Positions 2,904 to 38,487 of a DNA stretch of 54,073 bases are shown here, piece by piece (position 1 is the stretch's first letter; every line of letters begins with the position of its first letter). Origin of the DNA: Paracoccaceae bacterium (GTDB taxonomy: Bacteria > Pseudomonadota > Alphaproteobacteria > Rhodobacterales > Rhodobacteraceae); contig JAIXSA010000140.1 in the NCBI GenBank assembly GCA_027484915.1, positions 1 through 54,073 on the forward strand, given 5' to 3'. The notes below the pieces were generated by a model. That model saw only the letters and a program-made list of their open reading frames with translations, had not been told where the DNA came from and made no database searches. A program made the position numbers and the translations under genes.

Positions 2904-3955
2904 CGCCGCTTGCCCGTCTTCTGGTTCAGCGCATCCGCGAGACCGGGCCGATCACCGTGGCGGACTACATGGCCGAGTGTCTGCTGCATCCCGTCCACGG
3001 CTATTACACCACGCGCGATCCGTTCGGTGCGGCGGGCGATTTCATCACGGCGCCCGAAATCAGCCAGATGTTCGGCGAGCTTCTGGGGCTGGCGCTTGCC
3101 CAGTCCTGGCTTGACCGGGGGTCGCCCAAGCCCTTCACCCTGGCCGAACTTGGCCCAGGTCGGGGCACGCTGATGGCCGATATCCTGCGTGCAACCCGGG
3201 GCGTTCCCGGCTTTCATGCCGCAGTCCAACTCGTGCTGGTCGAGGCGTCGCCGGTGCTGCGCCAGATGCAGCAGCAGACGATTAGCCGGGTCGCCGACCT
3301 TGGGCCGCGATGGATCGAAGCCGCAGGGGATCTGCCCGAGCAACCCCTGTTTCTAGTGGCAAACGAGTTCTTCGATGCCCTGCCGATCCACCAGTTCCAG
3401 TCTGTGAACGGCGCATGGCATGAACGCCTGATCGGCTTGCGCGACGATGCCCTGACCTTCGGACTGGCCGAAGGACCGACCCTTCCCGGCACCCTTGCCA
3501 CGCAGCAAAAAAAAGATGGCCTGATCATCGAAGAGGGGCGCATCGCCCGCCTCATCATGCGGCAAGTGCAGACTCGGCTGGACCATCACGGCGGACTTGC
3601 GCTGGTCGTGGACTATGGCGGCTGGCGGTCGCGAGGGGACACGTTGCAGGCGCTGCGGGCCCATGCCTTCGACGACCCCCTTGCCCATCCTGGCGAGGCC
3701 GACCTGACCGCGCATGTCGACTTCGAGCCGCTGGCCGAGCAGCAGCCGTATTTCTACACCACGCAGGGCGAGTTCCTGACCCGCCTTGGCATCGACGCCA
3801 GGGCTGGCCGACTGGCGCAGCGCCTTTCCGGGCCCGCCCTGGAAAGCCACCTTGCCGCGCATCGGCGCTTGACCCATCCTGAAGAAATGGGTTCGTTGTT
3901 CAAGGTGCTGGCCGTCACGTCTGCCGGCGCCCCACCGCCCCCCGGATTCGCCTGA
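2900..3955 (+). CDS. MidA/NDUFAF7-type SAM-dependent methyltransferase
   Basis: The 351-residue protein starts at the ATG overlapping the lgt stop. It belongs to the DUF185/MidA family (COG1565), bacterial relatives of mitochondrial NDUFAF7, which methylates an arginine of a complex I subunit. Visible landmarks are the family N-terminus [21 protein letters not shown], the SAM-binding ELGPGRGT (83-90), and the [14 protein letters not shown] block around residues 152-165. Whether the bacterial enzyme has the same target is inference. The position between lgt and pgeF is common in Rhodobacteraceae. Confidence 0.88.
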
Positions 3956-28809: not shown

Positions 28810-29211
28810 ATGAAATCTGACGTTCCGACCGACGTGATGACCATCCGCGAGATGTGCGATGCCTATGACGTCACGCCACGTACCCTGCGCTTCTACGAGG
28901 CGAAGGAATTGCTGACCCCGATCCGCGTGGGGACCCGGCGGCTGTTCACCCGGCGCGACCGGGCCCGGCTGGCGCTGATCCTGCGCGGCAAGCGCTTCGG
29001 CTTCAGCCTGGAGGATATCCGGCAGACGCTGGACCTTTACGACCGCGACGGCGGCCTGACCGCCCAGCGTCAGAAGGCCTATGACCTGGCGGTGAAGCGG
29101 TTGGCAGAGATGGAGGCCCAGCGCGCCGAGCTGGACCTGGCGATCGCGGATCTGAAGGCCGAACTGAAGGAAGCCGAAGCCAAGGGCCTTGTGTCCAACC
29201 GCGCGGCCTGA
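28810..29211 (+). CDS. MerR family transcriptional regulator (LiuR-like)
   Basis: A 133-residue regulator. Residues 10-75 are the MerR winged helix (MTIREMCDAYDVTPRTLRFY...TRRLFTRRDRARLALILRGK) and about 80-125 a long dimerisation coiled coil (AEMEAQRAELDLAIADLKAE). There is no Cys-rich metal site. The size and its place directly before an acyl-CoA dehydrogenase and thiolase fit LiuR-type repressors of acyl-CoA degradation, which respond to acyl-CoA compounds; the effector here is inferred. No strong ribosome site precedes the ATG at 28810. The start at 28837 (MTIREM) is an alternative. Confidence 0.87.
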   Translation: MKSDVPTDVMTIREMCDAYDVTPRTLRFYEAKELLTPIRVGTRRLFTRRDRARLALILRGKRFGFSLEDIRQTLDLYDRDGGLTAQRQKAYDLAVKRLAEMEAQRAELDLAIADLKAELKEAEAKGLVSNRAA

Positions 29212-29256: not shown

Positions 29257-31029
29257 ATGCCAAGCTATACCGCCCCCGTGAAGGACATGCAGTTCGTGCT
29301 GCATGACGTCCTGAAGGTCTCGGACGCCGACATTCCCGGCTATTCCGACCTTGACCGCAGCTTCACCGAGGCGGTGTTCGACGAGGCGGCAAAGGTCGCG
29401 CAGGACATCCTGACTCCGCTGAACATCATCGGCGACGTCGAGGGCTGCGTGCTGGAGAACGGCGTCGTCCGAACGCCCAAGGGCTTCAAGCAAGCCTTCG
29501 ACAGTTTGCGCGAGGGCGGCTGGATGTCGCTGGACGCGGCCCCCGAATACGGCGGGCAGGGGCTGCCCTACCTGATGCACACGGCAGTGAACGAGACGTT
29601 CGTTTCAGCCAACATGGCCTTCAACATGTACCAGGGCCTGACCCACGGCGCCTATTCGGCGATCAAGGTGCACGGGACCGAAGAGCAGAAGGCGAAATGG
29701 CTGCCTAAGATGGTCTCATGCGAATGGACCGGCACGATGAACCTGACCGAGCCGCATTGCGGCACCGATCTGGGGATGATGCGGACCAAGGCCGAGCCGC
29801 AGGCGGACGGGTCCTACAAGATCACCGGGCAGAAGATCTTCATCTCGGCCGGCGACCACGACATGGCGTCGAACATCGTGCATCTGGTGCTGGCCAAGGC
29901 CCCCGGCGGTGGCGAGGGGACGAAGGGGATCAGCCTTTTCATCGTGCCGAAGTTCCTGGTGAACGAGGATGGCTCCTTGGGTGCGCGGAATGCCGTGTCC
30001 GTCGGCAAGGTCGAAGAGAAGATGGGCATCCACGGCAACGCCACCTGCGTCATGAACTACGACGGCGCGACGGGTTGGCTTCTGGGAGAGCTGCACAAGG
30101 GCATGAAGGCCATGTTCACCATGATGAACGAGGCCCGGCTTGGCGTGGCGCTGCAGGGCTATGCGGTGGCCGAGGCGGCGTATCAGAACGCTCTGACCTA
30201 TGCGAAGGACCGCCTGCAGGGCCGTGACGTGACCGGGGTGAAGAACCCGAACGGCCCGGCGGACCCGCTGATCGTCCACCCCGACATCCGCCGCAACCTG
30301 ATGGAGCAGAAAAGCTTTGGCGAAGGTGCCCGCGCCTGGGCCTACTGGAGCGCCACGCTGATCGACCGCGCCCACACCGGCGACGCGGCGGCGGACGGGC
30401 TGATCGGGCTGATGACTCCGGTCCTGAAGGGGTTCCTGACCGACAAGGGCTTCGAGATGGCGGTACAGGCCCAGCAGGTCTATGGCGGCCACGGCTATAT
30501 CGAGGAATGGGGCATGTCCCAGTTCGCCCGCGACGCCCGGATCGCCATGATCTACGAAGGCGCCAACGGCGTGCAGGCGCTGGATCTGGTGGGCCGCAAG
30601 CTGGCCACCGACGGCGGCAAGCATGTGATGGCGTTCTTTGAAATGGTGAAGGCCGAATGCAAGGCCCATGACGGCGACGACCGGATGAAGGGCTTCGTGG
30701 AGCCCTTGAAGGTGGCTTCGAAGGCGCTGCAGCAGGCGGGGATGTTCTTCATGCAGAACGGGATGAAGAACCCAAACGCGGCTTTGGCTGGCTCCTACGA
30801 CTTCATGCACATGATGGGCCATGTGTGCCTGGGCCTGATGTGGACCAAGATGGCGAAGGCCGCCTATGTGGCGCTGGATGCTGGCGCGCAGGACCGCGAC
30901 TTCTACGAGGCGAAGATCGCCACCGGCCGCTTCTACATGGCCCGCCAGCTTCCCGCCTGCGCGATGCACCTGATGCGCATCGAAAGCGGGGCCGAACCGG
31001 TCATGGCGCTGGCCGCCGAGGCGTTCTAG
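29257..31029 (+). CDS. Acyl-CoA dehydrogenase (long FadE/DmdC-like type)
   Basis: A 590-residue FAD enzyme oxidising acyl-CoA to enoyl-CoA. The FAD and substrate blocks are [17 protein letters not shown] and FISAGDHD. The catalytic base is Glu434 in [15 protein letters not shown]. It has the extra C-terminal domain (about 465-590) of the long subfamily that includes DmdC, the methylmercaptopropionyl-CoA dehydrogenase of marine Rhodobacterales, and FadE-like enzymes. Chain-length specificity cannot be read. GAGGGAAGAG lies before the ATG. It begins the catalytic part of the MerR-led operon. Confidence 0.92.
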
Positions 31030-31088: not shown

Positions 31089-31712
31089 ATGAAGCTGTAT
31101 TCCTTCGGCGAAAGCGGCAACGCTTACAAATGCGCCCTGGCGCTGGAGATGGCCGGGCTCGACTGGGAGCCCGTCTTCGTCGACTTCTTCAAGGGCGAGG
31201 CCCGCAGCCCCGAGTTCAAGGCGATCAACGAGATGGGCGAAGTCCCGGTGTTGATCGACGGCGACACCACGCTGACCCAGTCGGGGGTGATCCTGGACTA
31301 CATCAGCTCCAAGACCGGCAAGCTTGGAGGCAAGTCCGCTGCGGAACGGCGTGAGGTTCTGCGCTGGCTCTTCTGGGACAACCACAAGCTTTCCACCGCC
31401 ATCGGCACCACCCGCTTCCTGATGAACTTCCTGCCCGCCGACAAACGCCCCGAGGCGGTGATCCCCTTCCTGCAAGGCAGGCTCAAGGCCGCCTACACCG
31501 TGCTGAACGACCATCTTGCGGGCCGAAACTGGATCGCCGGTGAGGCCGTTACCATCGCTGACCTGTCGTGCTGCGGCTACCTCTACTACCCCGAGCCCTA
31601 CGGCTTTGCCCGCACCGACTGGCCGAACATCGACCGCTGGCTGGACCGCATCGCCGCCCTGCCCGCCTGGAAACACCCCTACGACCTGCTGACGCGGGCC
31701 TTTCCACAATGA
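31089..31712 (+). CDS. Glutathione S-transferase family protein
   Basis: A 207-residue protein with an N-terminal thioredoxin-like GSH domain (about 1-78: LYSFGESGNAYKCALALEMAG; EVPVLIDGDTTLTQSGVILDYI) and an all-helical C-terminal domain (about 88-205; WIAGEAVTIADLSCCGYLYY carries the conserved N-capping motif). Ser or Asn near residues 9-11 is the probable thiolate-stabilising residue. GSTs are frequent next to fatty-acid genes in Rhodobacteraceae, but the substrate is not known. Its stop overlaps the start of the small gene that follows. Confidence 0.9.
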   Translation: MKLYSFGESGNAYKCALALEMAGLDWEPVFVDFFKGEARSPEFKAINEMGEVPVLIDGDTTLTQSGVILDYISSKTGKLGGKSAAERREVLRWLFWDNHKLSTAIGTTRFLMNFLPADKRPEAVIPFLQGRLKAAYTVLNDHLAGRNWIAGEAVTIADLSCCGYLYYPEPYGFARTDWPNIDRWLDRIAALPAWKHPYDLLTRAFPQ

Positions 31713-31957
31713 ATACGGGATCGATTTTCCGGGCTCTGGGTCGGCGCATTCAAAGGCTCCAATATGGTGGAGACCTCGTCGCGAAGCATGAAATCAACCG
31801 ACAAGTGACGATCTGCCACCTTACCAATCCATTCAGCATCTACTTCGCCTTCAGATCTGAGACATCAGGCTGCATTTTGTCTGCAGACGAAGCCAGCGAG
31901 GTAGCGCGTCTGTTGGAACAGATTGTTGAGATCGAAAATCAAGGAGTAGCCCCATGA
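31709..31957 (+). CDS. Small unknown protein inside the beta-oxidation operon
   Basis: An 82-residue product I do not recognise. The ATG overlaps the GST stop, and its stop overlaps the thiolase ATG, so it is a genuine coupled gene. AAGGAG near 31942 serves the thiolase. The protein is soluble, with a basic N-terminus (GRRIQRLQYGGDL), a hydrophobic middle (HLTNPFSIYFAFRS) and an acidic helix at the end (ADEASEVARLLEQIVEIE). By eye the gene is about half G+C, well below its neighbours, which suggests later insertion into the operon. Confidence 0.65.
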   Translation: MNTGSIFRALGRRIQRLQYGGDLVAKHEINRQVTICHLTNPFSIYFAFRSETSGCILSADEASEVARLLEQIVEIENQGVAP

Positions 31958-33165
31958 CCGACGCCTTCATCTATGACGCCGTCCGCAGCCCCCGGGGCAA
32001 GGGCCGTCCCGACGGGTCGCTGCACGAGCTGACCGCTGTTGCCTTGTCGGCAAAGGTGCTGAACGCGTTGAAGGAACGGAACGGGCTGGAAGGCCACGCG
32101 GTTGAGGATGTGATCTGGGGGAATGTCACCCAGGTCGGCGAACAGGGCGGGTGCCTAGCGCGGTCGGCGGTGCTGGCTTCGGACCTCGACGAACGCATTC
32201 CGGGCCTTGCCATCAACCGGTTCTGTGCCAGCGGAATGGAGGCAGTGAACCTGGCGGCAAACCAAGTGAAGGGCGGTGCGGGCCACGCCTATATTGCCGG
32301 CGGGGTCGAGATGATGGGCCGCGTCGCGATGGGGTCAGACGGGGCGGCGATTGCCGTGGACCCGGGGCTGGCGATGAAGACCTACTTCGTGCCCCAGGGC
32401 ATCAGCGCGGACATCATCGCCACCGAATACGGCTTCACCCGCGACCAGGCCGACGCCTTGGCGATGGAATCCCAGCGCCGCGCCGCGCAGGCCTGGTCGG
32501 AAGGCCGGTTCGAGAAGTCGGTGCTGGTGATCAAGGACCAGAACGGCCTGCCGATCCTGGCCACCGACGAATACATGCGCCCCGGCACAGACATGCAGGC
32601 TTTGGGCGCGCTGCGGCCTGCCTTCAAGGAGATGGGCGAGGTGATGCCCGGCTTCGACAAGGTCGCGATGATGAAGTACCCGCATCTTGAACGGATCAAT
32701 CACATCCACCACGCCGGGAACTCCTCCGGGATCGTGGACGGGGCCGCCGCCGTGCTGATCGGCAATGCCGAGTTCGGGAAGGCCCACGGGCTGAAACCCC
32801 GCGCGCGCATCCGGGCGACGGCGAAGATCGGGACCGATCCGACGATCATGCTGACCGGCCCGGTTCCGGCGACGCAGAAGATCCTGAAGGACTCGGGCCT
32901 GCAGATCGGCGACATCGACCTGTTCGAGGTGAACGAGGCCTTCGCGTCTGTGGTTCTGCGTTTCCAGCAGGCCTTCGACGTCGATCCCGCGCTGGTGAAC
33001 GTCAACGGCGGGTCAATCGCGATGGGTCACCCCCTGGGTGCGACCGGCGCGATCATCATCGGGACCCTGCTGGACGAGTTGGAGCGGCAGGACAAAGAGC
33101 TTGGCCTAGCCACCCTCTGCATCGCCAGCGGCATGGGCGCGGCCACGATCATCGAACGGGTCTGA
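31954..33165 (+). CDS. fadA: Acetyl-CoA C-acyltransferase (thiolase)
   Basis: A 403-residue thiolase that splits 3-ketoacyl-CoA with CoA, the last step of beta-oxidation. The nucleophile is Cys91 ([12 protein letters not shown]), His359 lies in [13 protein letters not shown], and Cys389 in [12 protein letters not shown]. The last motif usually reads CxGGGxG; here Ala-Ser replaces two glycines, a mild variation. The C-terminus-to-fadJ order is interrupted by the five-gene cassette that follows. Confidence 0.92.
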
Positions 33166-33324: not shown

Positions 33325-33750
33325 ATGCATTCCCAACTGACCGCCGAGTTGCGCGCGCGCGGACACCTGCTTTTGCAGGGGCGCATCGACGAGCTGATCG
33401 ACAACTACATCTTCCCGCTTCCGGTATTTCTGCCCGAGCAGCGGATGCTTCTCACCTGCCGGGCGCAGGGGCGCGCCGTCTTCTCGCTGCTACACGCATC
33501 GCTGAAGCGCACAGGCGTCACCACCCTGCAGCCACAGGTCCAGGCGGTCGAGCTGCCGCGTTCCGGGCGCTTTCGGGTCTGGGTCGACTGGCAGGAACGG
33601 GTGCTGCCGACAGCCGAGACGCGGGTCTCATCCGCGATCTACTACTTCCGGGTGACACGGCTTGGCCCTGGCATCGAGATGGTGGACTATACCCGCCTGT
33701 CGATGCCCGAGCTGCATCAGGAGTTCGAGGCACTCGCGCTGTCCGCCTGA
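33325..33750 (+). CDS. NTF2-like small protein N1
   Basis: A 141-residue protein without a recognised family. It begins MHSQLTAELRARGHLLLQGR and contains the helix-rich start RIDELIDNYIFPLPVFL followed by alternating beta strands (RFRVWVDWQERVLP; SSAIYYFRVTRLGPG). It shares the layout and scattered identities (D/E-x-Y-x3-LP, a long helix ending in GVT, then strands) with the proteins at 34268 and 35850, and I read all three as NTF2/SnoaL-like alpha+beta barrels. The start is chosen by alignment to those; an in-frame ATG at 33244 would add 27 residues. Confidence 0.65.
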   Translation: MHSQLTAELRARGHLLLQGRIDELIDNYIFPLPVFLPEQRMLLTCRAQGRAVFSLLHASLKRTGVTTLQPQVQAVELPRSGRFRVWVDWQERVLPTAETRVSSAIYYFRVTRLGPGIEMVDYTRLSMPELHQEFEALALSA

Positions 33751-33800
33751 CGTCGCGCGCCTTCCAGGTCGGGCGTCAGCCCAACCAAGAGGAATGACCG

Positions 33801-34271
33801 ATGCCCGTGATTGACCCTGCCAAGGTTCCGCTGAAGACCGGATCGATCTACCCCGAACCCTATGCCAGCATGATGCAGGGCCGGTCTTCGCTGCGCCTGG
33901 GCGAGGCCGGGGGGCTGACGCAGTTTGGCGTCAACCTCGTCACGCTGGAACCCGGCGCGCTGTCCAGTTTGCGGCACTGGCACCTGAAGGAAGACGAGTT
34001 CGTCATGGTCACCGAGGGCGAATGCACCCTGGTCCAGGACGCGGGCGAGACGGTGATGCGGCCCGGCGATTGCGCTGCCTTCCCGGCGGGTTCGACCGAC
34101 GGGCACCATTTCATCAACCGCACCGACCGGGCGGCGCGCTTCCTTGTGATCGGATCGAAGGCCCCGCGCGAGGTGGCGACCTATTCCGACGTCGACCTCG
34201 TCTGCGAGATCGAGGGGGGGAAGGCGCGCTTTACCTACAAGGACGGCAGCGACTGGACAGGGCCGCGATGA
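33801..34271 (+). CDS. Single-domain cupin protein C1
   Basis: A 156-residue cupin (COG3837-like). Motif 1 is PGALSSLRHWHLKEDEF, giving HxH and Glu ligands; motif 2 is PGDCAAFPAGSTDGHHFIN, giving PxG, His and Asn. All metal ligands are kept. GAGGAATGACCG precedes the ATG. Cupins of this type bind Fe, Mn or Ni and act as dioxygenases, isomerases or sensors; the substrate is unknown. Its stop overlaps the next gene's ATG. It is clearly homologous to both halves of the protein at 34690-35694. Confidence 0.85.
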   Translation: MPVIDPAKVPLKTGSIYPEPYASMMQGRSSLRLGEAGGLTQFGVNLVTLEPGALSSLRHWHLKEDEFVMVTEGECTLVQDAGETVMRPGDCAAFPAGSTDGHHFINRTDRAARFLVIGSKAPREVATYSDVDLVCEIEGGKARFTYKDGSDWTGPR

Positions 34272-34693
34272 GCCCGATTTCGATCTATCCGTCCGGGCTG
34301 GACGTGGTGACTGCTGCGGTCCCTGCGGGCGACCTCGATGCCTATGCTGCGATGATCGACCTGCCTTATCTGGTGCACGCCGGCACGGCAGACCTCTTGG
34401 TATCGGATCGCGAAGGCCTGAGGCCGACCTTCCAGGCGCTTGGCGACGGGCTTAGGGTGCGTGATGTCACGCAGTGCGAGAGGATTGCCCGCGCAGCCGG
34501 CTGTGTCGACCGTGACGGGATCGAGGACACCGCCCATTCGCATGTCGCCTCGCCCACGATCGTTCGCAGGGATGACCGCTGGCTGTTTTCGCAGGCGCGC
34601 TATCGATCTCTTCAGACACGCCGCTGGCCCTTCGCCGACGCGCAGGTGTTCGGGCATTTCGACCAGACGGCGGATGCGGAGACTGCCTCGTGA
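34268..34693 (+). CDS. NTF2-like small protein N2
   Basis: A 141-residue protein similar in plan to N1 and N3: DLDAYAAMIDLPYLVHAG at the start, a helix EGLRPTFQALGDGLRVRDVT, then strands ending RWLFSQARYRSLQT. The ATG overlaps the C1 stop, and the last codon runs into the GTG start of the double cupin, so all three are coupled. No catalytic motif can be named. It has no signal peptide. Confidence 0.65.
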   Translation: MSPISIYPSGLDVVTAAVPAGDLDAYAAMIDLPYLVHAGTADLLVSDREGLRPTFQALGDGLRVRDVTQCERIARAAGCVDRDGIEDTAHSHVASPTIVRRDDRWLFSQARYRSLQTRRWPFADAQVFGHFDQTADAETAS

Positions 34694-35694
34694 TCCTGGA
34701 CCCTGCCGCAATCGTGGTCAGCCAGACCCCGGCCGCAGACGTGCCGCGGCTTGGTCGGGCGCGCACGCTGCATCTGTCGGATGCGGGCGGGCTGACCCAG
34801 TTCGGCGTTCACGAGCAGACCCTTCATCCGGGTGCCACCACCGGTTTGCGGCACTGGCACTCGGCCGAGGATGAGTTTGCCTATGTGCTGGAAGGCGTCG
34901 TCACGCTGGAAGATGACGACGGTTTGCAGGATCTGGGTCCGGGCGACGCCGTCGCCTGGCCACACGGGCGCCCGAACGCGCACCGCCTGCTGAACCGCAG
35001 TGACAAGCCATGCCGCTACCTGATCGTCGGCAGTCGGGCGAAGGGCGACATCTGCACCTATCCATACGACGGCCGCCGCCAGATCAACGAGGCCACCGCT
35101 TGGCGGATCGAGGCGGCGGACGGTGCCGTGCTGCGGTCCGGCGACCTGCCGGCCGAGCTGCTGAACCTGCGTGCGCCCTGGGGCCGGCCGTGGGACGGCA
35201 GCTCAAGGCCGCAGGTGCTTCGCGCCGGGTCGGTCGAACGGATGTACTGCACAAGCAACTATCCGGAAGGGTTTTCGGCGCTGGGCGATGCCTGGGACAT
35301 CGCCTTGTCGGACGCAGGTGGCCTGACCCAGTTCGGCGCTTTCCTGGAAATCGTTGATCCCGGCGGCCAGACGTCGGTGCGGCACTGGCACGAGGAAGAG
35401 GACGAGTTCCTTTATGTCCTCGACGGCACCGTCACGCTGTTGGAAGACGACGGGGCGCGCAGTATCGGTCCCGGCACGTCGGTCGCCTGGCCTGCTGGGA
35501 TCCCGAACGCCCATTGCCTTCGCAATGTCGGCGATACGCAGGCGATCCTCTTCATCGTCGGAACCCGCTTGCCGGAGGACAGCTGCCACTACCCCGATAT
35601 TGACCTTCATTACGCCCGCCGAAATGGCTTCCGCACCTTTACACGCAAGGACGGCACGCCCTATCCCGGCTGGCCCCGCGAGGTGGGCCGCTGA
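34690..35694 (+). CDS. Double-cupin protein C2-C3
   Basis: A 334-residue protein starting at GTG, made of two cupin domains (about 28-125 and 205-310) joined by a linker of some 80 residues. Each half has full ligands: LRHWHSAEDEFAYVLEG with AWPHGRPNAHRLLN, and VRHWHEEEDEFLYVLDG with AWPAGIPNAHCLRN. Both halves also share the AGGLTQFG block with C1. A duplication and fusion of a C1-like gene explains it. The length is close to bicupins such as gentisate dioxygenase, but the motifs do not prove that reaction. Confidence 0.82.
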   Translation: MILDPAAIVVSQTPAADVPRLGRARTLHLSDAGGLTQFGVHEQTLHPGATTGLRHWHSAEDEFAYVLEGVVTLEDDDGLQDLGPGDAVAWPHGRPNAHRLLNRSDKPCRYLIVGSRAKGDICTYPYDGRRQINEATAWRIEAADGAVLRSGDLPAELLNLRAPWGRPWDGSSRPQVLRAGSVERMYCTSNYPEGFSALGDAWDIALSDAGGLTQFGAFLEIVDPGGQTSVRHWHEEEDEFLYVLDGTVTLLEDDGARSIGPGTSVAWPAGIPNAHCLRNVGDTQAILFIVGTRLPEDSCHYPDIDLHYARRNGFRTFTRKDGTPYPGWPREVGR

Positions 35695-35849
35695 TGGCGA
35701 TGCATGCTCACGACATTTTTTTGATGCAAACGGGAACCGACGCCTGCATCCTGAGTTCTGCGTTAGGTGAAGTATTGTTCCACGACTTTCCGGCGCGCGC
35801 CTTGCTGGTTGGGGGCGTTCGTCCCCATCATTGCAAGGGGTCCCGATTC

Positions 35850-36296
35850 ATGAGCCCGACCGCCATTCTGCAGGTCTATCTGGACCGCATTGGCAAAGCA
35901 GTCCTGAGTGAGAGGTTCGAAGAGTATCGTAGCTTTGTGCAATTGCCCCTAAGCATCCAGACAGCCTCGGCAAGCATGACGATTTCCAACGACGAAGACC
36001 TGCTGGACGGGCTCGACGCCTTCAACGACATGCTACGGTCCCATGGCGTGACGGACATGATCCGTCCGGTAAAGGCGGCCGTCTTCCAGGGCACCGACCA
36101 CATCGTCGGCGTCTACGAGACGCGGTTGATGCGAGACTCGCAGCAGGTCCTTCCGACCTTCCATTCGAAGATGTGGCTCGGCTGCTTCAGCGGCATCTGG
36201 AAGGCGATGGAGATTCACAACACCACCAAAGATGCGCGCTGGCCAATTCTGCTGACCCGCCTTCCCCCTGACAATTGGCTTTCCGAGGAGACCTGA
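35850..36296 (+). CDS. NTF2-like small protein N3
   Basis: A 148-residue relative of N1 and N2: LSERFEEYRSFVQLPLSI, a helix ending LRSHGVTDMIRPV, then strands VGVYETRLMRD and MWLGCFSGIWKAMEI. I start at 35850 by alignment with N2 (both begin MSP). The same frame is open to an ATG at 35694 that overlaps the C2-C3 stop and would add 52 residues. The DNA is noticeably poorer in G+C than the flanking genes. It ends just before the TTG start of fadJ. Confidence 0.65.
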   Translation: MSPTAILQVYLDRIGKAVLSERFEEYRSFVQLPLSIQTASASMTISNDEDLLDGLDAFNDMLRSHGVTDMIRPVKAAVFQGTDHIVGVYETRLMRDSQQVLPTFHSKMWLGCFSGIWKAMEIHNTTKDARWPILLTRLPPDNWLSEET

Positions 36297-36297
36297 G

Positions 36298-38487
36298 TTG
36301 ACCGACTTCACCATGACCACTGACGCCGACGGCGTCGCCACCATCACCTGGGACGTCGCATCGAAGTCGATGAACGTCATGTCGACCGAGGCCTTCATGG
36401 CGCTGAGCGGTCAGATCGATCAGGCACTGGCGGACGGGTCGGTGAAGGGGGTGATCATCACCAGCGGAAAGAAGGACTTTGCCGGGGGCATGGACCTGAA
36501 CGTCATCGCCCGGATGCGGGCTGGCGGGGCTCAGGCGATCTTCGACGGCGTCATGCAGATGCATCAGACCTTGCGCAAGATCGAGCGGGCGGGGATGGAC
36601 CCGAAAAGCCTGAAGGGCGGCAAGCCCATCGTGGCCGCGCTGCCCGGCACTGCGTTGGGGATTGGGCTGGAACTGCCCTTGTCCTGCCACCGGATCATTG
36701 CCGCCGACAACCCGAAGGCCAAGATCGGCCTGCCCGAGATCCTGGTCGGGATCTTCCCCGGCGCGGGCGGCACGACGCGGCTGGTCCGCAAGCTTGGCGC
36801 GATGGCTGCGGCACCGTTCCTGCTGGAGGGGAAGCTGTCGGACCCCAAGTCCGCCAAGGCTGCCGGGATCATCGATGAGGTCGTGGCCCCCGAGGACCTG
36901 CTCAAGCGCGCCAAGGACTGGGTCCTGTCGGCCACCGACGCCGACCTAGTGAAACCCTGGGACGCCAAGGGCTACAAGATGCCCGGCGGCGCGCCCTACC
37001 ATCCGGCAGGGTTCATGACCTTCGTCGGTGCCAGCGCGATGGTCCACGGCAAGACGATGGGCGTCTATCCGGCTGCGAAGGCTTTGCTTGCGGCGGTCTA
37101 CGAAGGCGCCCTGGTGCCCTTCGACACAGCGCTTAAGATCGAGGCGCGGCACTTTACCAGCGTCCTGATGAACCCCTCCTCCACCGCGATGATCCGCAGT
37201 CTTTTCATCAACAAGGAGGCGCTGGAGAAGGGTGCAAACCGGCCCAAGGTCGAGGATATGGCCGTCCGCAAGCTTGGCGTGATCGGCGCAGGCATGATGG
37301 GGGCCGGGATCGCCTATGTCTCGGCCAATGCCGGGATCGAGGTGGTGCTGATCGACAGCACTCAGGACGCCGCAGACCGGGGCAAGGCCCACTCCGAAGG
37401 CATTCTCGACAAGGGCATGAAGCGCGGGAAGGTGACGGCTGACAAGAAGGCCGAGGTGCTGGGCCGGATCACGGCGACCACGGATTATGCCGCACTTGCC
37501 GGCGTCGATCTGGTGGTGGAAGCGGTCTTCGAGGACCCGAAGATCAAGGCCGAGGTGACGGCCAAGGTCGAGGCGGCCGTGGGTGCGGACTGCATCTATG
37601 CGACGAACACCTCGACCCTGCCGATCACCGGTCTGGCGGCGGCCTCAAGCCGGCGGGATCAGTTCATCGGCATCCACTTCTTCAGCCCGGTCGACAAGAT
37701 GAACCTGGTCGAGATCATCCGGGGCAAGGCGACCGGCGACAAGGCCGTTGCCAAGGCGCTGGATTTCGTCCGGCAGATCCGGAAGACCCCCATCGTCGTC
37801 AACGACGCCCGCTTCTTCTACGCCAACCGTTGCATCATCCCCTACATCAACGAAGGCATCCGCATGGTCGCCGAGGGGGTGGAGCCTGTGCTGATCGAGA
37901 ACGCCGCGAAGCTGGTCGGCATGCCTCTGGGCCCGCTTCAGCTGGTGGATGAGACCTCCATCGACCTCGGCGTGAAGATCGCCAAGGCGACCAAGGCGGC
38001 AATGGGCAAGGACTACCCCGATGAGGCCGTGGACCATGTGCTGTTCTGGATGGCCGACCAGGGCCGGCTGGGGAAGAAGGCCAATGCCGGGTTCTACGCC
38101 TATTCCGACAAGGGGGAGCGGCTGGGGCTGTGGGAGGGGCTGGAGGCGAAGTATCCACTGGACAAGGTGCAGCCGTCGCTGGCCGACGTGCAGCACCGTC
38201 TTTTGTTCGCGCAGGTGCTGGAAGCCGTCCGCGCGCTGGAGGAAGGCGTCCTGACCGACATCCGCGAAGGCGACGTGGGCGCGATCCTCGGCTGGGGCTT
38301 CGCGCCGTGGTCGGGCGGGCCGTTCTCGTGGCTGGACATGATCGGTGCGCCCCGCGCGGTAGAGATCTGCCGGGGCCTGACGGCGCAGTTCGGGCCGCGC
38401 TTCCATGCCCCGGCGCTTTTGCGCGAGATGGCCGAGAAGGGTCAGACCTTCTACGGTCGGTTCGCAAGTGAAAAGGCCGCAGCCTGA
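36298..38487 (+). CDS. fadJ: 3-hydroxyacyl-CoA dehydrogenase/enoyl-CoA hydratase fusion
   Basis: A 729-residue bifunctional beta-oxidation enzyme. Residues about 1-200 are crotonase (GGMDLNVIARM; oxyanion-hole PGTALGIGLELPLSCH; IGLPEILVGIFPGAGG). Residues about 320-500 are the NAD domain (KLGVIGAGMMGAGIAYV; GIHFFSPVDKMNLVEI with the catalytic His). About 505-729 are the C-terminal dehydrogenase domains. I accept the TTG at 36298 because GAGGAG lies seven bases upstream; ATG 36313 is the alternative. It closes the MerR-led operon and is followed by the 25-base repeat. Confidence 0.93.
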   Translation: MTDFTMTTDADGVATITWDVASKSMNVMSTEAFMALSGQIDQALADGSVKGVIITSGKKDFAGGMDLNVIARMRAGGAQAIFDGVMQMHQTLRKIERAGMDPKSLKGGKPIVAALPGTALGIGLELPLSCHRIIAADNPKAKIGLPEILVGIFPGAGGTTRLVRKLGAMAAAPFLLEGKLSDPKSAKAAGIIDEVVAPEDLLKRAKDWVLSATDADLVKPWDAKGYKMPGGAPYHPAGFMTFVGASAMVHGKTMGVYPAAKALLAAVYEGALVPFDTALKIEARHFTSVLMNPSSTAMIRSLFINKEALEKGANRPKVEDMAVRKLGVIGAGMMGAGIAYVSANAGIEVVLIDSTQDAADRGKAHSEGILDKGMKRGKVTADKKAEVLGRITATTDYAALAGVDLVVEAVFEDPKIKAEVTAKVEAAVGADCIYATNTSTLPITGLAAASSRRDQFIGIHFFSPVDKMNLVEIIRGKATGDKAVAKALDFVRQIRKTPIVVNDARFFYANRCIIPYINEGIRMVAEGVEPVLIENAAKLVGMPLGPLQLVDETSIDLGVKIAKATKAAMGKDYPDEAVDHVLFWMADQGRLGKKANAGFYAYSDKGERLGLWEGLEAKYPLDKVQPSLADVQHRLLFAQVLEAVRALEEGVLTDIREGDVGAILGWGFAPWSGGPFSWLDMIGAPRAVEICRGLTAQFGPRFHAPALLREMAEKGQTFYGRFASEKAAA

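What the first reader, a model, noticed from the sequence alone, without database searches (positions are those of the whole stretch)
33325..36296. Alternating NTF2-like/cupin cassette embedded in a beta-oxidation operon
Between thiolase and fadJ lie five genes in the order N1-C1-N2-(C2C3)-N3. The three cupin domains share AGGLTQFG, RHWH..EDEF and PxGxxxxH blocks with all metal ligands kept. The three N proteins look like paralogues of one alpha+beta barrel fold. From C1 to C2C3 the genes overlap by four bases. It looks like a repeated two-gene module (NTF2-like plus cupin) that was duplicated and partly fused. Cupins and NTF2-like proteins often form small-molecule enzymes, so a dedicated side reaction for an unusual acyl-CoA or aromatic acid is possible. 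I know of no described system of this form.
Basis: partly seen in the sequence, partly recalled or inferred. Interest (0 to 1): 0.78.

Follow-up and report, generated by a model that had tools for sequence, protein, structure and literature searches.

The report
Variable cupin/NTF2 slot in beta-oxidation operon
Between two core fat-burning genes, Rhodobacteraceae bacteria keep a slot that holds zero to six small protein domains, almost all from two families (metal-binding cupins and fast-changing NTF2-like proteins) that come and go independently, which points to optional helper proteins for fatty-acid breakdown.

Summary
The anatomy is real: between thiolase and fadJ lie N1, C1, N2, C2C3 and N3, with complete cupin metal sites. 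N1 and N3 are confidently predicted NTF2-like folds; N2 is their homologue. The reading as a duplicated N-cupin module fails. In 128 thiolase-fadJ junctions of one family the slot holds 0 to 6 N or cupin domains. In the 100 not chosen for slot content, 10 have both, 22 only N, 28 only cupin, 40 neither: no pairing. Trees reject local duplication of the cupins (p 0.0009) and, weakly, of N2/N3 (p 0.04). Fusions are N-N or C-C, N-C once in 31. One other recognised gene appears in 88 filled slots; no N or C domain was found antisense, and 35 of 88 last genes overlap the inferred fadJ start. N evolves several times faster than its neighbours; cupin C1 is conserved. Best reading: a slot for optional accessory proteins of beta-oxidation, the cupin probably a metal enzyme, N probably a dimeric binding protein (catalysis not excluded). 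No biochemistry is shown, and a neutral slot is not excluded. The window's slot is the longest of the 128; two Tabrizicola records share its order.

The parts
28810..29211 (+). MerR-type regulator gene at the head of the operon
   Evidence: Pfam MerR-DNA-bind E 2e-15
29257..31029 (+). acyl-CoA dehydrogenase gene
   Evidence: Pfam Acyl-CoA_dh_C, _1, _N and _M
31089..31712 (+). glutathione S-transferase-like gene
   Evidence: Pfam GST_N, GST_C
31954..33165 (+). thiolase, left edge of the slot
   Evidence: NCBIfam NF006090 668.6 bits, cut-off 514
33325..33750 (+). N1: NTF2-like protein, subfamily a; dN/dS 0.41 against the same-genus copy
   Evidence: model pLDDT 96, Foldseek NTF2-like prob 1.00
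33801..34271 (+). C1: single-domain cupin, the conserved slot cupin
   Evidence: Pfam Cupin_2 E 3e-18; PDB 3i7d E 6e-55; 80 of 80 best relatives lie behind thiolase
34268..34693 (+). N2: NTF2-like protein, subfamily b; overlaps C1 and C2C3 by four bases
   Evidence: tblastn and profile homology to N3 and N1; not modelled
34690..35694 (+). C2C3: fused bicupin, GTG start, both metal sites complete
   Evidence: Pfam Cupin_2 E 1.5e-34, two stretches
35850..36296 (+). N3: NTF2-like protein, subfamily b
   Evidence: model pLDDT 91.1, Foldseek SgcJ 4ovm E 2e-7 prob 1.00; start by homology
36298..38487 (+). fadJ, right edge of the slot
   Evidence: Pfam ECH_1, 3HCDH_N, 3HCDH; best NCBIfam models FadJ/FadB, below their equivalog cut-offs

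Best explanation
The five genes fill an accessory slot inside the main fatty-acid beta-oxidation operon of Rhodobacteraceae. At this one junction, between the thiolase (beta) and FadJ (alpha) genes, lineages gain, lose and fuse small proteins of two unrelated families: AGGLTQFG cupins and a fast-evolving NTF2-like family. Shown here: position, near-exclusive content, sense orientation, turnover, independence of N and C, like-with-like fusion. Inferred: the products are optional helpers of the thiolase/FadJ steps. The cupin is most likely a mononuclear-metal enzyme acting on a small beta-oxidation-derived molecule (a beta-dicarbonyl or enol is my guess). The N proteins are most likely dimeric proteins that bind an acyl intermediate or a partner protein; catalysis by them is less likely but not excluded. 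Each works alone, so the window's six-domain array is a stack of separate accessories, not one N-cupin machine.
For: 128 junctions with slot lengths near 15, 480, 1000, 1500 and 2000 bases, the window longest at 3135. Arrangements: 40 empty, 24 C, 21 b, 10 bb, and 17 other arrangements in 33 genomes. Among 88 filled slots one other recognised gene, a GFA enzyme in L090; only leftovers over 180 bases were looked at. Control: in the fadJ-chosen loci with a measurable GST, the GST-thiolase junction is 300 bases or more in 5 of 91, the slot in 59 of the same 91; with the N-chosen loci and window 6 and 84 of 116. No N or C domain found antisense in the slots, and 35 of 88 last slot genes overlap the inferred fadJ start, 25 by four bases. 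Fusions: N-N 12 of 17, C-C 6 of 18 (one is the split C1 of L034), N-C 1 of 31. dN/dS over the pairs tried: N 0.41-0.94, C1 0.16-0.30, C2 and C3 0.34-0.36, core genes 0.08-0.17. Cupin ligand motif intact in 62 of 69 domains. No residue able to act as acid or base reaches 90 percent in 66 NB rows other than an Arg. No terminator-like site inside the slot.
Against: No biochemical or fitness evidence. 40 of 100 fadJ-chosen slots are empty, so none of this is essential across the family. N copies also sit in unrelated places (ribosomal-protein, tsf and hisG neighbourhoods), and strong cupin relatives lie outside the slot in 15 of 128 genomes, so neither family is bound to beta-oxidation. Conserved polar residues in N leave catalysis open: NB has Asp in 57 and 52 of 66 rows at two columns and Arg in 62; N1-type proteins have a last-strand Glu in 16 of 20 and an Arg in 17 of 20. 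Three slot cupins have a changed metal ligand. dN/dS values are pairwise, with dS up to 1.3, and rough.
Confidence: 0.47

Rival explanations
1. One reading: N and cupin form a two-gene enzyme module that was duplicated and partly fused to process one unusual acyl-CoA or aromatic acid.
For: Alternation and four-base overlaps in the window; the same order in two Tabrizicola records, L192 and L195; 7 of 31 adjacent N-C pairs overlap by four bases.
Against: N and C occur independently in 100 fadJ-chosen genomes, with no association in tree-aware pairs (low power); local duplication rejected for C and weakly for N2/N3; N-C fusion once in 31 adjacent pairs.
Confidence: 0.08
2. Permissive neutral slot: a junction that tolerates insertions, holding genes unrelated to fatty-acid oxidation that come and go by recombination between the conserved flanking genes.
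For: High turnover: at least 33 changes for C and 38 for N on a thiolase tree of 127 rows, single gene and quickly built; decaying remnants in L034, L058 and L085 (by eye); N copies in other core operons; higher dN/dS of N.
Against: Two families plus one GFA gene in 88 filled slots; no antisense copy found; many overlaps with the inferred fadJ start; C1 dN/dS much nearer to the core genes than that of N.
Confidence: 0.23
3. Both families are non-enzymatic ligand sensors or subunits that tune the thiolase/FadJ complex, changing with the host's lipid diet.
For: Position between the genes of the two complex subunits; few near-invariant residues in N; fast evolution with the fold kept.
Against: Cupin ligand motif kept in 62 of 69 domains, which a pure sensor need not keep; co-variation with thiolase or FadJ was not tested.
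Confidence: 0.2

Closest known systems
PDB 3i7d, single-domain cupin titled 'sugar phosphate isomerase' (from Silicibacter/Ruegeria pomeroyi: recalled)
   Same: C1 matches over nearly its whole length, E 6e-55, with the metal-site histidines and glutamate kept.
   Different: I know of no measured activity behind the title, and I could not place that gene in its genome.
Oxalate decarboxylase / bicupin family (TIGR03404, PDB 1j58)
   Same: Bicupin layout of C2C3 and distant similarity (28.4 bits).
   Different: Far under the family cut-off of 254.2 bits.
SnoaL / ketosteroid-isomerase / SgcJ-type NTF2-like proteins
   Same: Fold of N1 and N3 (Foldseek prob 1.00). A few members touch such families weakly: SnoaL_3 5e-5 and SnoaL_4 6e-4 in 1 of 66 each, DUF4440 in 2 of 66, TIGR02246 (SgcJ/EcaC) in 2 of 66, DUF6841 in 2 of 20 N1-type rows.
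   Different: N1, N2 and N3 themselves reach no Pfam or NCBIfam cut-off.
Fungal COG3837 cupins AtD and PatJ of terreic acid and patulin pathways (PMC12356543, passages read)
   Same: Possibly the same COG as C1; the COG of C1 is recalled, not tested.
   Different: Secondary metabolism in fungi; no sequence comparison was made.

Membership tests
Cupin superfamily (Cupin_2, PF07883) | Pfam score above the gathering cut-off | tested here: met
   C1 65.6 bits, C2C3 117.9 bits, cut-off 27.2
Cupin superfamily (Cupin_2, PF07883) | two-His, Glu, His metal site | tested here: met
   All three window domains; motif intact in 62 of 69 slot domains; of the other 7, two are fragments, two vary outside the ligands, three have a changed ligand (read by eye). 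Metal binding itself was not tested.
Oxalate decarboxylase bicupins (TIGR03404) | score above the curated cut-off | tested here: not met
   28.4 against 254.2 bits
NTF2-like superfamily | cone-shaped alpha+beta fold | tested here: met
   N1 and N3 models, pLDDT 96 and 91, Foldseek prob 1.00; N2 by homology only
SnoaL / ketosteroid isomerase families | curated family score | tested here: not met
   No Pfam family for N1 or N3, only FmrO below its cut-off for N2; weak matches in a few of 66 and 20 relatives
SnoaL / ketosteroid isomerase families | conserved catalytic acid/base | tested here: inconclusive
   None at 90 percent apart from an Arg in NB, but Asp in 57 and 52 of 66 NB rows and Glu in 16 of 20 N1-type rows; their place in the pocket was not examined
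Two-gene N-cupin module | N and cupin co-occur across genomes | tested here: not met
   10 both, 22 N only, 28 C only, 40 neither of 100
Two-gene N-cupin module | copies arose by duplication of the pair | tested here: not met
   p-AU 0.0009 for the cupins, 0.041 for N2+N3, quick trees
General insertion hotspot | many unrelated gene families as cargo | tested here: not met
   One GFA gene besides N and C in 88 filled slots; leftovers under 180 bases not looked at
Beta-oxidation enzymes or subunits | activity on, or binding to, acyl-CoA or the thiolase/FadJ complex | not testable with these tools
   needs purified proteins

The most novel reading that the evidence does not exclude
The thiolase-FadJ junction is a plug-in port of a core metabolic complex: two unrelated small folds serve as interchangeable, rapidly evolving subunits that set substrate range or regulation of the beta-oxidation complex, and lineages tune fat use by swapping them in and out.
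Probability: 0.2. Interest if true: 0.78.

Novelty: new variant of a known kind. Interest (0 to 1): 0.55.

Why it matters
The core fatty-acid oxidation operon is usually thought of as fixed. A junction in it whose cargo comes almost only from two non-homologous families, changes fast and was found only in the operon's sense, suggests unknown accessory functions of beta-oxidation in a large group of aquatic bacteria. C1 already has a close solved relative (3i7d) without a reaction known to me, and the empty and filled slots among close relatives give natural controls.

Tried and rejected
Rejected: N-cupin module; oxalate decarboxylase membership; defence function (PADLOC gave only a weak PDC-S09 match for C1, E 0.004); phage origin (no PHROG match for the five proteins). 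Plasmid search with N2: no match. Complementarity between slot cupins and cupins elsewhere looked promising but is not significant (p 0.16 in 128, 0.20 in 100). Profile search of NB against solved structures gave only what look like chance matches (portal protein E 0.004, phosphatase, calmodulin); the N1-type profile gave KSI/NTF2 entries at E 0.009 at best. Class-level search for NB: 8 of 337 genomes matched, the window's own, one other family genome strongly and six in other families weakly. Promoter and terminator scan: 2 promoter-like sites (shuffles mean 1.3) and 2 terminator-like sites (shuffles mean 5.7), so uninformative.

Limits: 27 of the 128 slot loci were chosen because they hold N, and the window is the case itself. 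The other 100 were picked by hand from the printed part of the fadJ list, which shows better matches first and leaves some out, so genomes with poorly matching fadJ are under-sampled. The family sample is nearly one genome per genus. Gene starts other than the window's are inferred from homology. N and C profiles were refined on the same slots. L098, with a 350-base slot without N or C, is counted as empty. On re-checking I found the conserved Asp and Glu columns of N, softened the 'no catalysis' claim, lowered the best explanation from 0.50 to 0.47 and raised the neutral slot from 0.22 to 0.23.
Full report
On the + strand of the window lie MerR, acyl-CoA dehydrogenase, GST, thiolase (31954-33165), N1 (33325-33750), C1 (33801-34271), N2 (34268-34693), C2C3 (34690-35694), N3 (35850-36296) and fadJ (36298-38487). 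Pfam gives Cupin_2 for C1 and C2C3 and no family above its cut-off for the N proteins; NCBIfam gives none for N.

N1, N2 and N3 are one superfamily. N2 finds N3 in its own genome by tblastn (E 5e-4). Profiles of 17 N1-type (NA) and 24 N2/N3-type (NB) proteins match each other (hhalign probability 97, E 1e-10). AlphaFold2 models of N3 (66-row alignment, pLDDT 91) and N1 (20 rows, pLDDT 96) have NTF2-like solved structures as best Foldseek matches, probability 1.00: SgcJ, SgcE6, designed NTF2 folds, ketosteroid isomerase-like proteins. N2 was not modelled. Near-invariant residues are P, R and W in 66 NB rows and one P in 20 NA rows. Less strictly, NB keeps Asp in 57 and in 52 of 66 rows at two columns, and NA keeps a last-strand Glu in 16 of 20 and an Arg in 17 of 20, so catalysis by N is not excluded.

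The place is a slot. I took 29 stretches around N matches and 100 stretches upstream of fadJ, picked without regard to slot content. With the window, 128 loci hold both thiolase and fadJ in one orientation, 27 of them from the N-chosen set; L043 and L045, where an N gene lies elsewhere, have neither. Slot lengths cluster near 15, 480, 1000, 1500 and 2000 bases; the window's 3135 is the longest. Domain order by profile search (a = NA, b = NB): none 40, C 24, b 21, bb 10, a 5, bC 5, aCCC 3, CC 3, aCCb 2, bbCb 2, bCC 2, bCb 2, and one each of aCbCCb (window), ba, CCb, aC, bbCC, bbb, bbC, CCC and Cb. The 'aCCb' of L034 is really a, C1 with an internal in-frame deletion, b, and a remnant of C3; the C of L058 is a fragment. 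Among stretches over 180 bases without N or C, only that of L090 gave a recognised gene, a GFA enzyme; it was the only one I took to Pfam, the others I judged by eye. As a control, in the fadJ-chosen loci the GST-thiolase junction is 300 bases or longer in 5 of 91, the slot in 59 of the same 91; with the N-chosen loci and the window the numbers are 6 and 84 of 116. No N or C domain was found antisense in the slots, and 35 of 88 last slot genes overlap the inferred fadJ start, 25 of them by four bases.

N and C are not a pair. In the 100 fadJ-chosen genomes, 10 hold both, 22 N only, 28 C only and 40 neither; about 12 'both' are expected if independent. Tree-aware pairs show no association (median p 1), with only 13 and 14 supported pairs and so little power. 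Adjacent domains are fused in 12 of 17 N-N and 6 of 18 C-C cases (one C-C case is the split C1 of L034) but 1 of 31 N-C cases; four-base overlaps occur in 7 N-C, 7 C-C and 2 N-N pairs. Holding the window's three cupins as one clade costs 140 log-likelihood units (p-AU 0.0009), and N2 with N3 43 units (p-AU 0.041); these are quick trees, and the N tree warns of few columns and long branches. C1, C2 and C3 each have closer relatives in other genomes, and C1 followed by a C2C3 bicupin without an N between them occurs in L035 and L133. So the array was more likely assembled piecewise.

Rates differ. Between the window and the same-genus genome, thiolase and fadJ are 94 and 91 percent identical, N1 60 and N2 44 percent. 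Pairwise dN/dS over the comparisons made: N 0.41-0.94, C1 0.16-0.30, C2 and C3 0.34-0.36, core genes 0.08-0.17. All are under 1. The cupin ligand motif is intact in 62 of 69 slot domains; of the other seven, two are fragments, two vary only outside the ligands and three (L035, L088, L151) have a changed ligand (read by eye).

Distribution. In 198 family genomes the NB profile matches 59, the cupin profile at 1e-10 matches 107 and the fadJ start 193. Of 90 NB matches, 70 lie in the slot, 12 elsewhere and 8 in genomes whose fadJ place I did not have. In the class, 8 of 337 genomes matched NB: the window's own, one other family genome strongly (1e-39) and six in other families weakly (8e-9 or worse). 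The 80 best cupin relatives in named genomes all have the thiolase upstream and 78 also fadJ downstream; 39 are thiolase-C-fadJ, and two Tabrizicola records, L192 and L195, show exactly the window's order. The name Rhodobacteraceae for the family rests on the titles of these named records.

Interpretation. Near-exclusive content, sense orientation, overlap with the fadJ start and conservation of C1 speak for a function tied to this operon; turnover, empty slots and copies elsewhere speak for an optional one, or for none. I read the cupin as a mononuclear-metal enzyme and N as a dimeric binding protein; fold and ligands are predicted or read from sequence, the reactions are guesses. The neutral-slot rival is not excluded. 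Paper searches: searches gave no paper; one search listed 20 of 34 papers, mostly on DMSP, none of those 20 with fadJ; one search listed two papers that I did not open; one search listed one, on fungal cupins, read in passages. None of what I saw describes this slot; the library holds open-licence PMC papers only.

Noticed in passing
L173:5749-6831, L174:5835-6281, L177:5522-5992: NB genes inside ribosomal-protein gene clusters: in L173 two antisense copies between L16 and S17, in L177 one antisense behind L16; in L174 and L177 a 2OG-Fe(II) oxygenase (PF13759) is close by.
   Followed up: partly
L175:5759-6451, L176:5718-6197, L043:7577-8080: Further single N genes beside tsf and hisG (Pfam) and, in L043, a few kilobases from a GroEL-like gene (by eye).
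   Followed up: no
L182, L183, L186, L190; L181, L184: Out-of-slot cupin relatives sit behind a Bax-inhibitor-1 family gene (Pfam for L186; others by eye) or beside a CobO-like gene (by eye).
   Followed up: no
L034:7480-8641: Same-genus genome: C1 lacks 26 codons in frame including AGGLTQFG, between repeats coding SSLR, and only a tail of C3 is left before fadJ.
   Followed up: partly
31709-31957: Small open frame of 82 codons between GST and thiolase without a Pfam match.
   Followed up: no
L224: A record titled Exiguobacterium profundum (MAG) holds a thiolase-CCC-fadJ slot like those of Rhodobacteraceae, so the title is probably wrong.
   Followed up: no
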